Shown here: positions 32,979 to 41,200 of the stretch, in pieces
Numbering within the stretch: position 1 is the first letter of the stretch
Layout of the letters: every line of letters begins with the position of its first letter
Assembly (NCBI GenBank): GCA_009720755.1
Contig: WNKV01000003.1
Coordinates: 62,001 to 126,000 of the forward strand
Source: Rhodoplanes serenus
GTDB taxonomy: Bacteria; Pseudomonadota; Alphaproteobacteria; Rhizobiales; Xanthobacteraceae
Direction of reading: 5' to 3'
Length of the DNA: 64,000 nt
Made by a program: the position numbers and the translations under genes
The notes under the pieces: model-generated
Database searches by the model: none
What the model was told of the DNA's origin: nothing
Seen by the model: only the letters and a program-made list of their open reading frames with translations

Positions 32979-33770
32979 TCAGCCCTGCTTCAGGCCGGCT
33001 CGCACCTCCGCCTCGATCAGCTTCCAGATGCGATCCACCAGGCCGACGAACGCCTGGCTCCGCTTGAGCTCCAGGGTGCGCGGCCGTGGCAGCGGCACGG
33101 CGATCTCCTCGCGAATGGTGCCGGGCCGGGCGCTGAACACGATGACGCGGTCGGAGAGGAACACCGCCTCGTCGATCTGGTGGGTGATCAGCAGCACGGT
33201 CTTGCGGGTCTCCTGCCAGATCGACAGAAGCTCGGTCTGCATGATCTCGCGGGTCTGCGCGTCGAGCGCCGCGAACGGCTCGTCGAGCAGCAGGATCTTC
33301 GGATTGACCGCGAGCGCCCGGGCGACGTTGACGCGCTGGCGCATGCCGCCCGAGAGCTGGTGCGGATAGTGGTGCTCGAAGCCGCCCAGCCCGGCGATGT
33401 CGATGAACCGCTGGGCGATGCGGTGGGCGTCGCGAGTCGGCATGCCGGCCAGCGACAGGCCGTAGCCGACATTGTCGATCACGGTCTTCCACGGCAGCAG
33501 CGAGTCCTGCTGGAACACCACGGCGCGGTCGGGACCCGGCTGGTCGACGATGCGGCCGTCGACCAGGATGCGACCTTCGCTCGCCGGGATCAGCCCGTCG
33601 ATGATGCGCAGCAGCGTCGACTTGCCGCTGCCGCTGGCGCCGACGATCGACACGAACTCGCCTTCGGCGATCGTCATGTCGATGTCGCGCAGGGCTTCGA
33701 CGGCAGGCTTGTTGCGCCGCCGGAAGGTCTTGCCGATACCTTCGACGCGCAGACGGACGGCGCTGTTCAT
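32979..33770 (-). CDS. ABC transporter ATP-binding protein, NitT/TauT (SsuB-like) family
   Basis: Cytoplasmic ATPase of an importer. The 263-residue product has Walker A VGASGSGKST near residue 43, the Q-loop VVFQQDSLLPWKT, the signature QLSGGMRQRVNVARAL, Walker B ILLLDEPFAALD and the H-loop LLITHQIDEAV. These are the marks of the nitrate/sulfonate/taurine importer class. Its ATG follows GGAGGCAGGA and overlaps the permease stop by four bases. It is the distal gene of the minus-strand cluster that starts at 40307. Confidence 0.95.
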   Translation of the reverse strand: MNSAVRLRVEGIGKTFRRRNKPAVEALRDIDMTIAEGEFVSIVGASGSGKSTLLRIIDGLIPASEGRILVDGRIVDQPGPDRAVVFQQDSLLPWKTVIDNVGYGLSLAGMPTRDAHRIAQRFIDIAGLGGFEHHYPHQLSGGMRQRVNVARALAVNPKILLLDEPFAALDAQTREIMQTELLSIWQETRKTVLLITHQIDEAVFLSDRVIVFSARPGTIREEIAVPLPRPRTLELKRSQAFVGLVDRIWKLIEAEVRAGLKQG

Positions 33771-34549
33771 TCCTGCCTCCATGGTGCGAGCCGCCGCTCC
33801 AGCGAGGCGAACAGCACGCTGCCGATCAGGCCCATGGCGCCCAGCATGATGACGTAGCCGAGCACCCGGGCGGTGTCGAAAGTCTGGCTCGCCGACAGGA
33901 TGGCGAAGCCGAAGCCGGCGAAGGAGCCGAAGAACTCCGCCACCACGATGCCGACCAGCGCGCGCGCCCAGGCGACTCGCACGCCGCTGACGATGAACGG
34001 CAGCGCGTAGGGGAACGTCACGGTGGTGAAGATCTGCATCGGCCGCGCGTTGAACGAGCGCGCCGCCTCGACGAGCTGCGGGTCGGTGGCGCGCAGCCCC
34101 GCCTCGGTGGTCACCACCACCGGGAACACCGCGACCAGGATGACCAGCACGAACTTGGAGGTGAAGCCGAGCCCGAGCCAGGCGATGAACAGCGGCGCCA
34201 GGGCGATGATCGGCACCGAGTTGAGGGCGCTGAGCACCGGCCCGCCGGTGAGCGACAGCATGCGGCTGGACGCCAGGGCGAGGCCGATGGCGACGCCGAT
34301 CGCCACCGAGACGACGAACGAGGTGACCACCGCCGTGACGGTGGCGGTCGCGTTGGTCCACATGGCGCCGTCGACCACCTCGTGGACGAGAGCGGCCGCG
34401 ACGTCGGCGGGCGGCACCAGCAGGAGCCGGTTGGTGACCACCATCGACACCACCTGCCAGATCAGCAGTACCGCGACGACCGAGATCGCGATCCGCGCCA
34501 GGCTGGCGGTCCGGGTGTCCTGTTCGAGAAAGTCGTACAAGCGCCGCAC
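33767..34549 (-). CDS. ABC transporter permease, SsuC/TauC-like
   Basis: 260-residue inner-membrane permease with six or so membrane segments. The cytoplasmic EAA-type loop is TTEAGLRATDPQLVEAARSF followed by NARPMQIFTTVTFPYALPFI, which contacts the ATPase. The segment ALNSVPIIALAPLFIAWLGL is also characteristic of this family. The start is ATG 34549. It is translationally coupled to the ATPase gene; a 235-base gap separates it from the TctC-type gene upstream. The most likely binding-protein partner is the NitT/TauT-type protein at 39330-40307. Confidence 0.94.
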   Translation of the reverse strand: MRRLYDFLEQDTRTASLARIAISVVAVLLIWQVVSMVVTNRLLLVPPADVAAALVHEVVDGAMWTNATATVTAVVTSFVVSVAIGVAIGLALASSRMLSLTGGPVLSALNSVPIIALAPLFIAWLGLGFTSKFVLVILVAVFPVVVTTEAGLRATDPQLVEAARSFNARPMQIFTTVTFPYALPFIVSGVRVAWARALVGIVVAEFFGSFAGFGFAILSASQTFDTARVLGYVIMLGAMGLIGSVLFASLERRLAPWRQE

Positions 34550-34784
34550 GGTCGGCTCCCGTTATCGCGCGTGGGCGGGGGCCGGGCTATGCCGGCGGTG
34601 CGACGCGACGATCGCCCGCGGATGGCCGGCGACACAGAGGCTGATCATGGACGTCTCCCCGATGTCGGGTGGGTGTCGGATCGTGGTCGAGAGATGAGGC
34701 CGGGCCGCGCCGGCCACAACGATCCGGAGGGATCGCGTGGCCCGGCCGCCACCCGGCCGAGTGTGCGGCCCGGTGCATGGCGGG

Positions 34785-40355: not shown

Positions 40356-40420
40356 AAGGAGTGCATATTGTCAGCATACGGCAATGATCCTTTTTGGCAA
40401 GAAATGAAAAATCACTCCTT
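40356..40420. promoter_or_regulatory. Candidate operator region between the binding-protein gene and iclR
   Basis: An AT-rich island in an otherwise GC-rich window, holding two nested inverted repeats. The outer pair is AAGGAGTG (40356-40363) and CACTCCTT (40413-40420). The inner imperfect palindrome ATTGTC...GGCAAT (40367-40385) has ATTGnC/GnCAAT half-sites. It lies between divergent genes, one of which encodes an IclR-type regulator, so it is the natural place for that protein to bind. By-eye evidence only. Confidence 0.5.
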
Positions 40421-40438
40421 GATTGTGGGCGTTCAGAT

Positions 40439-41200
40439 ATGAATGGACCGGCGCGAATCCTCGCCGTTTTGCAGCTCTTCGAGGGCGGGCCGAGCGTGTG
40501 GACCGTCGAGGAGATCGGCCGTGCGCTCGACCTGTCGACCTCGACGGCCTACCGGAGCGTGCGGGCGCTGGTGTCCGCCGGCATGCTGGAGCCCGTCGCC
40601 GGCGCCGGCTACGCGCTCGGCCCGGCCTTCATCCGCTACGACCGGCTGCTGCGGCAGAGCGACCCGCTGATCCTGGTGGCCGATCCGGTGATGCGGGAGC
40701 TGCTCGACGCCATCGCGGGGCGCGGCACCCTCGTGCTGTGCCGTCGGTTCCGCGACTGCGTCATGTGCGTGCACGAGGTGCGTGGCCCGCCGCCCTACGG
40801 CGAGACCACCTACGAGCGCGGCGTCGCGATGCCGATGTTCGTCGGTGCCAGCTCCAAGGCGATCCTCGCGAGCCTGCCGGACCGCCTGCTCAAGTCGGCC
40901 TATCTGGAGAACGAGGCGGCGATCCGCGCCTCGGGACCGAAGAGCTGGGCCGAGTTCAAGGAGCATCTGCGCGAGATCAAGCGCCTCGGCTACGCGCTGA
41001 CCGACTCCGAGGTGGCGCCGGGCCGCATCGGCCTCGCAGCGCCGATCTTCCGCGGCGACCAGGTGGTGGCCGGCATCAGCCTGGTCGTCACCACGCCGGT
41101 GATGAGCCGCGCCCAGGTCGAGGCGTTCGTGCCGAAGCTACAGGCCGCCGCCGAGGCGATCGGTGAGCGGCTGTCGGACGACCAGGGGCTGCCGCGATGA
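40439..41200 (+). CDS. IclR-family transcriptional regulator
   Basis: 253 residues: an N-terminal winged helix-turn-helix (ARILAVLQLFEGGPSVWTVE, LDLSTSTAYRSVRALVSAGM) followed by the IclR effector domain (TYERGVAMPMFVGASSKAIL, GYALTDSEVAPGRIGLAAPI, VVAGISLVVTTPVMSRAQVE). ATG 40439 is the best start, although its ribosome-binding site is weak; a TTG at 40394 would add 15 residues. It is divergent from the seven-gene transport/hydrolase cluster and most likely controls it in response to a small organic ligand. Confidence 0.93.
   Translation: MNGPARILAVLQLFEGGPSVWTVEEIGRALDLSTSTAYRSVRALVSAGMLEPVAGAGYALGPAFIRYDRLLRQSDPLILVADPVMRELLDAIAGRGTLVLCRRFRDCVMCVHEVRGPPPYGETTYERGVAMPMFVGASSKAILASLPDRLLKSAYLENEAAIRASGPKSWAEFKEHLREIKRLGYALTDSEVAPGRIGLAAPIFRGDQVVAGISLVVTTPVMSRAQVEAFVPKLQAAAEAIGERLSDDQGLPR

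What the first reader, a model, noticed from the sequence alone, without database searches (positions are those of the whole stretch)
32979..41200. Undescribed-looking IclR-controlled cluster: two binding proteins, CobW chaperone, cyclic amidohydrolase, racemase/isomerase-fold enzyme, ABC importer
Seven minus-strand genes face an IclR regulator. The combination of a dihydropyrimidinase/allantoinase-like hydrolase, a two-cysteine maleate isomerase/Asp-Glu racemase-like enzyme, NitT/TauT uptake and an orphan TctC protein is not one I can match to a named pathway. It reads as import of a cyclic amide or imide, metal-dependent ring opening and isomerisation of the product. Classical hydantoin pathways pair a racemase of the same superfamily with a hydantoinase, but here no carbamoylase is present.
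Basis: partly seen in the sequence, partly recalled or inferred. Interest (0 to 1): 0.75.

Follow-up and report, generated by a model that had tools for sequence, protein, structure and literature searches.

The report
Uncharacterised operon for ring-opening cyclic amides

Summary
In detail: seven minus-strand genes (atp, perm, tctC, racemase-fold MAI, cyclic amidohydrolase HYD, CobW, NMT1-type SBP) face an IclR gene. The core is conserved: among 41 relative loci, CobW is immediately upstream of HYD in 36, IclR is near in 34, perm/atp/sbp in 26-27. The HYD+racemase pair is not the conserved unit: MAI adjoins HYD in two relatives. HYD forms a clade apart from E. coli allantoinase and hydantoinase, meets no NCBIfam cut-off among the hits shown, and keeps its metal ligands plus a dihydroorotase-like Arg, Asn and His. 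MAI is a two-cysteine enzyme closest to maleate isomerase; its next relatives adjoin carbamoylase and cyclic-amide-hydrolase genes. Carbamoylase-family genes lie elsewhere in 21 of 21 cluster genomes tested, against 25 of 57 class genomes. A palindrome occurs in 23 of 35 IclR intergenic regions against 1 of 254 others, but the window's copy fails. Best reading: IclR-controlled import and ring-opening of an anionic cyclic amide or ureide. Substrate unproven; new variant of a known kind.

The parts
40439..41200 (+). IclR-family regulator, divergent
   Evidence: Pfam HTH_IclR and IclR_C; an iclR relative lies within 6 genes of HYD in 34 of 41 relative loci
40368..40384 (-). operator-like degenerate palindrome TTGCCGTATGCTGACAA
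   Evidence: located; resembles the TTNNCA-N5-TGNNAA palindrome of relatives but scores 7/8 fixed and 4/6 pairs, below the threshold used; overlaps the promoter-like -10 hexamer ending at 40373
39330..40307 (-). sbp: NMT1/NitT-TauT-type periplasmic binding protein
   Evidence: Pfam NMT1 65.6 bits; sbp within 6 genes of HYD in 27 of 41 loci
38230..39324 (-). cobW: COG0523-type GTPase with GCLCC motif and His-rich stretch
   Evidence: Pfam cobW and CobW_C; motif; immediately upstream of HYD in 36 of 41 loci
36802..38187 (-). HYD: cyclic amidohydrolase with full metal-ligand set and dihydroorotase-like Arg63, Asn96 and His324
   Evidence: Pfam Amidohydro_1; conservation; model pLDDT 92.5, closest fold 1gkr L-hydantoinase TM 0.91
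35991..36773 (-). MAI: two-cysteine (C83, C196) AMDase/maleate-isomerase/racemase-fold enzyme; accessory
   Evidence: Pfam Amdase 116 bits; both Cys invariant in 22 of 22 aligned; best fold match maleate isomerase 4fq5
34785..35864 (-). tctC: TctC/Bug-type binding protein; accessory
   Evidence: Pfam TctC 201 bits; only 36-37% identical to the tctC of the two other MAI-bearing loci
33767..34549 (-). perm: ABC permease
   Evidence: Pfam BPD_transp_1; within 6 genes of HYD in 26 of 41 loci
32979..33770 (-). atp: ABC ATPase
   Evidence: Pfam ABC_tran; within 6 genes of HYD in 27 of 41 loci

Best explanation
An IclR-type regulator controls an operon that imports an anionic, carboxylate-bearing cyclic amide or ureide (of the dihydroorotate / hydantoin-5-carboxyalkyl type) through the NMT1-type ABC importer, with tctC as a second binding protein that could borrow one of the genome's TctAB permeases. 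HYD, a metal-dependent amidohydrolase that receives its metal with help from the operon's CobW GTPase, opens the ring. Its Arg63, Asn96 and His324 hold the substrate carboxylate as in dihydroorotases. MAI, present in few members, epimerises or isomerises the ring or the opened acid so that the other stereoisomer can be used. The opened product is finished by enzymes encoded elsewhere, such as an M20 carbamoylase if it is a ureido acid. Shown: gene content, conservation, residues, folds, recurring intergenic palindrome in relatives. Inferred: substrate class, CobW client, MAI reaction, regulation, import.
For: Core genes recur across 41 relative loci, cobW directly upstream of HYD in 36. R63, N96 and H324 unchanged in 42 of 42 close and 23 of 23 far HYD rows and aligned with dihydroorotase residues. 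NMT1-type and TctC-type uptake replace each other next to HYD (perm directly downstream in 22 loci, tctC in 7), which fits an anionic ligand. 37 of 38 HYD-linked CobWs fall in one group of 38 rows, and a CobW of another lineage lies one gene from a 43% HYD relative, L055. GCxCC in 38 of 38. Palindrome in 23 of 35 iclR intergenic regions against 1 of 254 others. Carbamoylase-family gene in 21 of 21 cluster genomes tested against 25 of 57 class genomes. MAI relatives adjoin carbamoylase-family, creatininase-fold, PuuE-like or D-glutamate-cyclase-like genes.
Against: No substrate is shown. The palindrome was read off the same sequences that were then counted, and the window is one of the 12 of 35 that fail the threshold. 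The Arg/Asn/His set is also present in proteins annotated as allantoinase or dihydroorotase-family (L167, L168), and the His alone in L-hydantoinase 1gkr, so it marks a carboxylate-binding type at most. 0 of 22 far loci have cobW near HYD, so HYD relatives there do without a linked CobW. CobW relatives are common: 101 of 385 class genomes have one at E<=1e-80, and in 28 of the 30 best loci no HYD hit was found within the 1.5 kb flanks. The closest fold is an L-hydantoinase, which in the alignment lacks the Arg and Asn.
Confidence: 0.5

Rival explanations
1. Classical neutral hydantoin or dihydropyrimidine use: HYD is a hydantoinase/dihydropyrimidinase, MAI a hydantoin racemase, and the carbamoylase is supplied in trans.
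For: Closest solved sequence and fold is the L-hydantoinase 1gkr; MAI's fold also matches hydantoin and allantoin racemases, at TM 0.52-0.59; carbamoylase-family genes in 21 of 21 cluster genomes tested; a dihydropyrimidinase gene beside ABC transporter genes is reported from Aminobacter (PMC3546935, passages).
Against: TIGR02033 D-hydantoinase 204.3 bits against a 393.25 cut-off; R63/N96/H324 are as in dihydroorotases and all three are absent from E. coli HyuA; MAI is much closer to maleate isomerase, TM 0.81-0.83, than to hydantoin racemase.
Confidence: 0.2
2. One reading: HYD opens a cyclic imide such as maleimide or succinimide and MAI isomerises maleate/maleamate-type products to the trans form.
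For: MAI keeps two cysteines and its best fold match is maleate cis-trans isomerase.
Against: EutA and arylmalonate decarboxylase cut-offs are missed and no maleate-isomerase family appears among MAI's two NCBIfam hits; MAI is absent from 39 of 41 relative loci (some are cut by contig ends), so trans-isomerisation cannot be an obligatory step; MAI's next relatives adjoin carbamoylase-family genes.
Confidence: 0.15
3. HYD is a backup dihydroorotase for pyrimidine synthesis, as in Zur-controlled zinc-sparing pyrC paralogues that travel with COG0523 genes.
For: COG0523 genes and pyrC paralogues occur together in Zur regulons (PMC2770081, passages); HYD shares Arg/Asn/His with dihydroorotases.
Against: That Zur-linked PyrC paralogue lacks the zinc ligands (PMC2770081, passage) whereas HYD keeps them; the own genome has a class II PyrC at 421.8 bits against a 292.95 cut-off (8 of the 10 genomes searched have one, G395 and G397 do not); the operon holds uptake genes and an IclR; the dihydroorotase cut-offs shown are missed. 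Zur boxes were not searched.
Confidence: 0.05
4. The ring is an ectoine-like tetrahydropyrimidine-carboxylate and MAI is an EutA relative.
For: MAI's best NCBIfam model is EutA, 147.6 bits; a 36% MAI relative on an Aminobacter plasmid lies a few kb from ehu genes.
Against: EutA cut-off of 318 bits not met, and EhuA for atp (138.4 against 345.4 bits), the only other ectoine-named hit shown, is missed too; known ectoine ring opening uses another enzyme family (recalled).
Confidence: 0.05

Closest known systems
Hydantoin utilisation (hyu) operons: hydantoinase, racemase, carbamoylase
   Same: Cyclic amidohydrolase of the same superfamily; racemase-fold enzyme beside it in three loci, the window included; carbamoylase-family genes in the genome
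   Different: No carbamoylase in the locus; CobW and IclR are the usual partners; the racemase-fold enzyme is of maleate-isomerase/AMDase type and rare
Ergothioneine utilisation ErtD/ErtE (hydantoin-5-propionate amidohydrolase and N-carbamylglutamate amidohydrolase)
   Same: HYD scores 211 bits to ErtD and the two carbamoylase-family proteins tested beside MAI relatives score 260-273 bits to ErtE; carboxylated hydantoin as substrate type
   Different: Far below the cut-offs (650 and 520). That a racemase-superfamily enzyme takes part in that pathway is recalled; the paper was not found
Dihydroorotase (PyrC)
   Same: Metal ligands and Arg/Asn/His
   Different: Misses the dihydroorotase cut-offs shown; own genome has a separate PyrC
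L-hydantoinase 1gkr (Arthrobacter aurescens)
   Same: Best solved relative, 221 bits, 31% identity, TM 0.91
   Different: Lacks the Arg and the Asn of the HYD family in the alignment, keeps the His
Maleate cis-trans isomerase / arylmalonate decarboxylase / EutA
   Same: Fold and two cysteines of MAI
   Different: No NCBIfam cut-off met; genomic context of cyclic-amide and carbamoylase-family genes
COG0523 metallochaperone GTPases (nitrile hydratase activator Nha3, YciC, CobW)
   Same: G3E GTPase with GCxCC, many with a His stretch (motif described in PMC2770081, passages)
   Different: Partner is a cyclic amidohydrolase in an IclR operon; the words hydantoin, amidohydrolase and IclR do not occur in that paper's main text

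Membership tests
D-hydantoinase/dihydropyrimidinase (TIGR02033) | curated score cut-off 393.25 bits | tested here: not met
   204.3 bits
Allantoinase AllB (TIGR03178) | curated score cut-off 357.85 bits | tested here: not met
   251.3 bits; the tree separates HYD from E. coli AllB, with long branches
Dihydroorotase | family cut-offs (best hit NF002668, cut-off 452 bits) | tested here: not met
   252.1 bits; the other dihydroorotase models shown are missed too
Dihydroorotase | metal ligands plus Arg, Asn and His that bind the substrate carboxylate (role recalled) | tested here: met
   H59, H61, K146, H188, H247 and R63, N96, H324 in 42 of 42 close and 23 of 23 far rows; D320 in 41 of 42 and 23 of 23; of six divergent rows one lacks N96, one K146, one H188 and one H247
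Zur-type PyrC paralogue | loss of zinc ligands (PMC2770081) | tested here: not met
   ligands kept
Zur-type PyrC paralogue | Zur box upstream | not tested
   no Zur search was run
Hydantoin-5-propionate amidohydrolase ErtD | cut-off 650 bits (NF058539) | tested here: not met
   211.2 bits
EutA | cut-off 318 bits (TIGR02990) | tested here: not met
   147.6 bits
Arylmalonate decarboxylase | cut-off 225 bits (NF052327) | tested here: not met
   117.1 bits
Two-cysteine racemase/isomerase superfamily | two conserved cysteines | tested here: met
   C83 and C196 invariant in 22 of 22
Maleate cis-trans isomerase | activity on maleate | not testable with these tools
   fold match only
hyu operon | carbamoylase beside the hydantoinase | tested here: not met
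   none among the eight genes; in trans in 21 of 21 genomes tested
COG0523 GTPase | cobW domain and GCxCC motif | tested here: met
CobW of cobalamin synthesis (TIGR02475) | cut-off 332.1 bits | tested here: not met
   141.5 bits

The most novel reading that the evidence does not exclude
The operon's CobW is a dedicated metallochaperone for a previously unnamed family of catabolic cyclic amidohydrolases, making this a client pair for a COG0523 GTPase that is encoded in one operon, regulated by substrate through IclR rather than by zinc through Zur, and recruited twice (main family and the L055 lineage).
Probability: 0.4. Interest if true: 0.65.

Novelty: new variant of a known kind. Interest (0 to 1): 0.45.

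Why it matters
Which proteins COG0523 GTPases serve was called not obvious for most of the family in PMC2770081 (passage); here a GTPase and a likely metalloenzyme client stand side by side in 36 of 41 related loci, so the pairing can be tested directly. The HYD family also marks a catabolic pathway, found in Alpha- and Betaproteobacteria, whose substrate is unknown and whose enzyme meets no curated family cut-off shown.

Tried and rejected
HYD+MAI as the conserved unit: rejected, since MAI is beside HYD in only 2 of 41 relative loci, in 2 of 36 cluster-bearing genomes searched at E<=1e-50, and MAI was found in 0 of 5 congeners at E<=1e-40, one of them 58% complete. The class relatives of MAI in L007-L035 have no HYD hit within flanks of about 1.5 kb.

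tctC as MAI's co-inherited partner: not supported, 36-37% identity to the tctC of the other two MAI loci against 47% to an unlinked one.

One clade of HYD-linked CobWs: rejected as stated (p-AU 0.003) because of L055; 37 of 38 do group, with one outsider (L175).

Close relatives on plasmids or phages: none at 60% identity or more (MAI 620 and HYD 1030 plasmid records, HYD 29 phage records, all under 60%).

Riboflavin/lumichrome catabolism as a match for the far relatives: the word luciferase does not occur in the lumichrome paper's main text, and the passages read did not match (PMC12746152, passages).

A look for ErtD-bearing genomes to compare neighbours gave 0 of 200, and its control rang nowhere, so nothing follows. 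Ergothioneine catabolism papers were not found in the library. Literature searches with CobW plus hydantoinase plus IclR, and CobW plus dihydropyrimidinase plus operon, found no paper; dihydroorotase-like/arylmalonate decarboxylase/maleate isomerase/hydantoinase/catabolism, at least three terms, found none; COG0523 plus amidohydrolase listed 7 papers, none opened and none with such a title. Other searches; two papers hold the word CobW once each and were not opened. 'Not described' rests on these only; the supplements of PMC2770081 were not read.

Rows dropped before counts: one search used 41 + 24 of the 69 loci (L126-L129 left out as fragments or remote; L123 and L124 had no HYD called). The 41 include one locus labelled actinobacterial (L095) and several cut by contig ends; the far 24 include one alphaproteobacterial fragment (L122). 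In some searches the 42 close rows include the second, 31% HYD of L072, and L101 stands apart. Of 20 MAI places, 15 regions were fetched and read; five were not.

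Full report
What is there. The window holds seven minus-strand genes, 32979-40307, facing an IclR gene at 40439-41200. Pfam names them ABC ATPase, permease, TctC, Amdase/Asp-Glu racemase, amidohydrolase, CobW and NMT1. Spacing is tight from sbp to MAI (5, 42, 28 bp) and loose around tctC (126, 235 bp); perm and atp overlap. The window lies in a 5.5 Mb genome of 51 contigs; the closest HYD proteins found are those of Rhodoplanes, at 94-95%.

What is conserved. A scan of named genomes with HYD gave 69 loci. 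I called genes in them with my own script and grouped proteins by BLAST. In 41 loci of the window's type, cobW is immediately upstream of HYD in 36; within six genes lie iclR in 34, sbp in 27, atp in 27, perm in 26 and tctC in 12. Directly downstream of HYD stand perm (22), tctC (7), an MmgE/PrpD gene (4), MAI (2), another gene (3) or a contig end (3). So the usual form is iclR | sbp-cobW-HYD-perm-atp, with a second form iclR | cobW-HYD-tctC. The slot after HYD is variable: empty, MAI(+tctC), or an MmgE/PrpD gene with an octopine-dehydrogenase-type gene (L070, L077, L082, L084; families tested on L082). In 22 far loci with a called HYD (mostly Chloroflexota and Acidobacteriota) the partners within six genes differ: an alpha/beta hydrolase in 19, a luciferase-like oxidoreductase in 15, cobW in none. 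HYD is rare: in a class sample of 385 genomes, 7 have a match at E<=1e-60, the own genome included, the best other being 43% identical.

MAI is an add-on. MAI at E<=1e-50 was found in 2 of 36 cluster-bearing genomes, both directly after HYD (82% and 77%; L075 Bordetella petrii BT1 and L076 Parapusillimonas granuli), and in none of 5 congeners at E<=1e-40, one of them 58% complete. The window HYD groups with Rhodoplanes HYDs whose loci lack MAI, so MAI and tctC were probably gained in the window's lineage (inference). In 200 genomes of the Bordetella petrii genome's family, 15 have MAI relatives at E<=1e-60, those two included. Of 20 places I read 15: two are the HYD loci; seven hold two tctC genes, a creatininase-fold gene, in six an HpcH-type aldolase, MAI, an M20 gene and a 2-hydroxyacid dehydrogenase; six hold tctC genes with, in five, a D-glutamate-cyclase-like gene (families tested on L150 and L151 only). 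The M20 representative passes the carbamoylase-family cut-off (264.4 against 204 bits). A 51% relative, L043, lies between two pairs of PuuE-like (129.8 bits, cut-off 424.6) and M20 (252.7 bits, cut-off 204) genes, one pair tested. These contexts make a racemase or isomerase role in lactam/ureide catabolism more likely than an isolated maleate step (inference). Both cysteines, C83 and C196, are invariant in 22 of 22 aligned proteins; the model (pLDDT 93.8) matches maleate isomerase 4fq5 best.

The hydrolase. HYD's best solved relative is L-hydantoinase 1gkr, 221.5 bits, also the closest fold (TM 0.91, model pLDDT 92.5). It reaches no NCBIfam cut-off among the 25 of 57 hits shown. It keeps the residues aligned with metal ligands, H59, H61, K146, H188, H247 (42 of 42 close rows, 23 of 23 far) and D320 (41 of 42; 23 of 23), and R63, N96 and H324 throughout. 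In six divergent relatives (34-43%) N96, K146, H188 and H247 are each missing once. R63 and N96 align with the Arg and Asn of dihydroorotases and are missing from 1gkr; H324, the second His of the DHAPH motif, is in both. Their role in holding the dihydroorotate carboxylate is recalled. E. coli AllB lacks R63 and H324 and HyuA lacks all three, but an Azospirillum 'dihydroorotase family' protein and a haloarchaeal 'AllB' have all three, so the set is a type mark, not unique. In the tree 62 of 79 rows, the window included, form a supported set (100/99) apart from AllB, HyuA and the PyrC'-type row, with long-branch warnings. The own genome has a class II PyrC (421.8 bits, cut-off 292.95), so HYD is not needed for pyrimidine synthesis.

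CobW. The window CobW has a P-loop, GCLCC and a His-rich stretch; 38 of 38 HYD-linked CobWs (HYD within two genes) have GCxCC and 24 of 38 a His-rich stretch. Relatives are common: 101 of 385 class genomes have one at E<=1e-80. Of the 30 best loci read, with 1.5 kb flanks, only the window's own has the full HYD beside it and one more (L193) has a 35% HYD-like hit. In a tree, 37 of 38 HYD-linked CobWs lie in one group of 38 (98/94) with one outsider, and the L055 CobW lies elsewhere; one clade for all 38 is rejected (p-AU 0.003). L055 carries a 43% HYD relative one gene away from its CobW, so a cobW-HYD association may have arisen twice (inference). The main text of the COG0523 survey PMC2770081 (passages read) has no occurrence of hydantoin, amidohydrolase or IclR; its Zur-linked PyrC paralogue lacks zinc ligands, unlike HYD.

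Regulation. Many of the divergent iclR intergenic regions (35 examined, window included) carry a 17-bp palindrome TTNNCA-N5-TGNNAA with half-sites that change together (TTGTCA..TGACAA, TTCGCA..TGCGAA, TTGCCA..TGGCAA). 23 of 35 pass 7 of 8 fixed bases and 5 of 6 pairs, against a mean of 0.3 and at most 2 in 200 sets of resampled sequence and 1 of 254 other intergenic regions of the same loci. The pattern was read off these sequences, so the figures overstate it. The window's copy, TTGCCGTATGCTGACAA (40368-40384), fails (7 of 8, 4 of 6); it overlaps the -10 of the only promoter-like site found, which would suit a repressor (inference).

Fate of the product. Genes of the hydantoinase/carbamoylase family (TIGR01879) pass the cut-off in 21 of 21 cluster genomes tested (the own genome and 20 others) and in 25 of 57 class genomes, the own one included. 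Genome size confounds this. The own genome has four. So absence from the locus does not argue against a ureido product. The own genome also has 12 TctA matches.

Mechanism and verdict. The most likely reading is an IclR-controlled module that imports an anionic cyclic amide or ureide and opens it with a CobW-assisted metal hydrolase, MAI or the MmgE/PrpD gene serving a stereo-inversion or isomerisation slot in some members. Gene content, conservation, residues and folds are shown; substrate, client relation, import and regulation are inferred. It is a new variant of a known kind, with the CobW-HYD pairing as its most testable novelty.

Noticed in passing
window 44385-47019 (-): A second ABC set (permease, NMT1-like binding protein, ATPase as read from the sequence) lies about 3 kb beyond the IclR gene; not part of the conserved cluster.
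   Followed up: no
window 41333-44353 (+): A quinone-oxidoreductase-like gene, a PaaI-like thioesterase and an acyl-CoA-ligase-like gene (names by reading) follow iclR; the thioesterase group has four members, the window's and those of L061, L062 and L094.
   Followed up: partly
window 26021-32941: The cluster ends next to a TauE/SafE-like gene (32192-32941, by reading) and flagellar-type genes (by reading); most of these have counterparts in L061, L062 and L094.
   Followed up: partly
G000:C33:213302-214321 and 219080-220255: The own class II PyrC and a carbamoylase-family gene lie 5 kb apart on the window's contig; in G388 such a pair is directly adjacent.
   Followed up: no
L151, L153, L154, L159, L160: MAI relatives beside a D-glutamate-cyclase-like gene, tctC genes and a divergent D-amino-acid-dehydrogenase-like gene (families tested on L151): possibly a D-amino-acid or oxoproline pathway.
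   Followed up: partly
L100, L102-L111: Chloroflexota/Acidobacteriota HYD relatives sit in other operons: alpha/beta hydrolase, LLM oxidoreductase, in some molybdenum-hydroxylase-type genes (by reading), an M20 gene or a gentisate-dioxygenase-like cupin.
   Followed up: partly
L086 and L088: A metagenome bin labelled Bordetella parapertussis has a HYD nearly identical to that of an uncultured betaproteobacterium (end branches 0.0005 and 0.03); the label may be wrong.
   Followed up: no
L004 (G000:C4): The dihydroorotase-like gene beside an aspartate-carbamoyltransferase-like gene (by reading) lacks the HxH metal motif, like an inactive PyrC'.
   Followed up: partly
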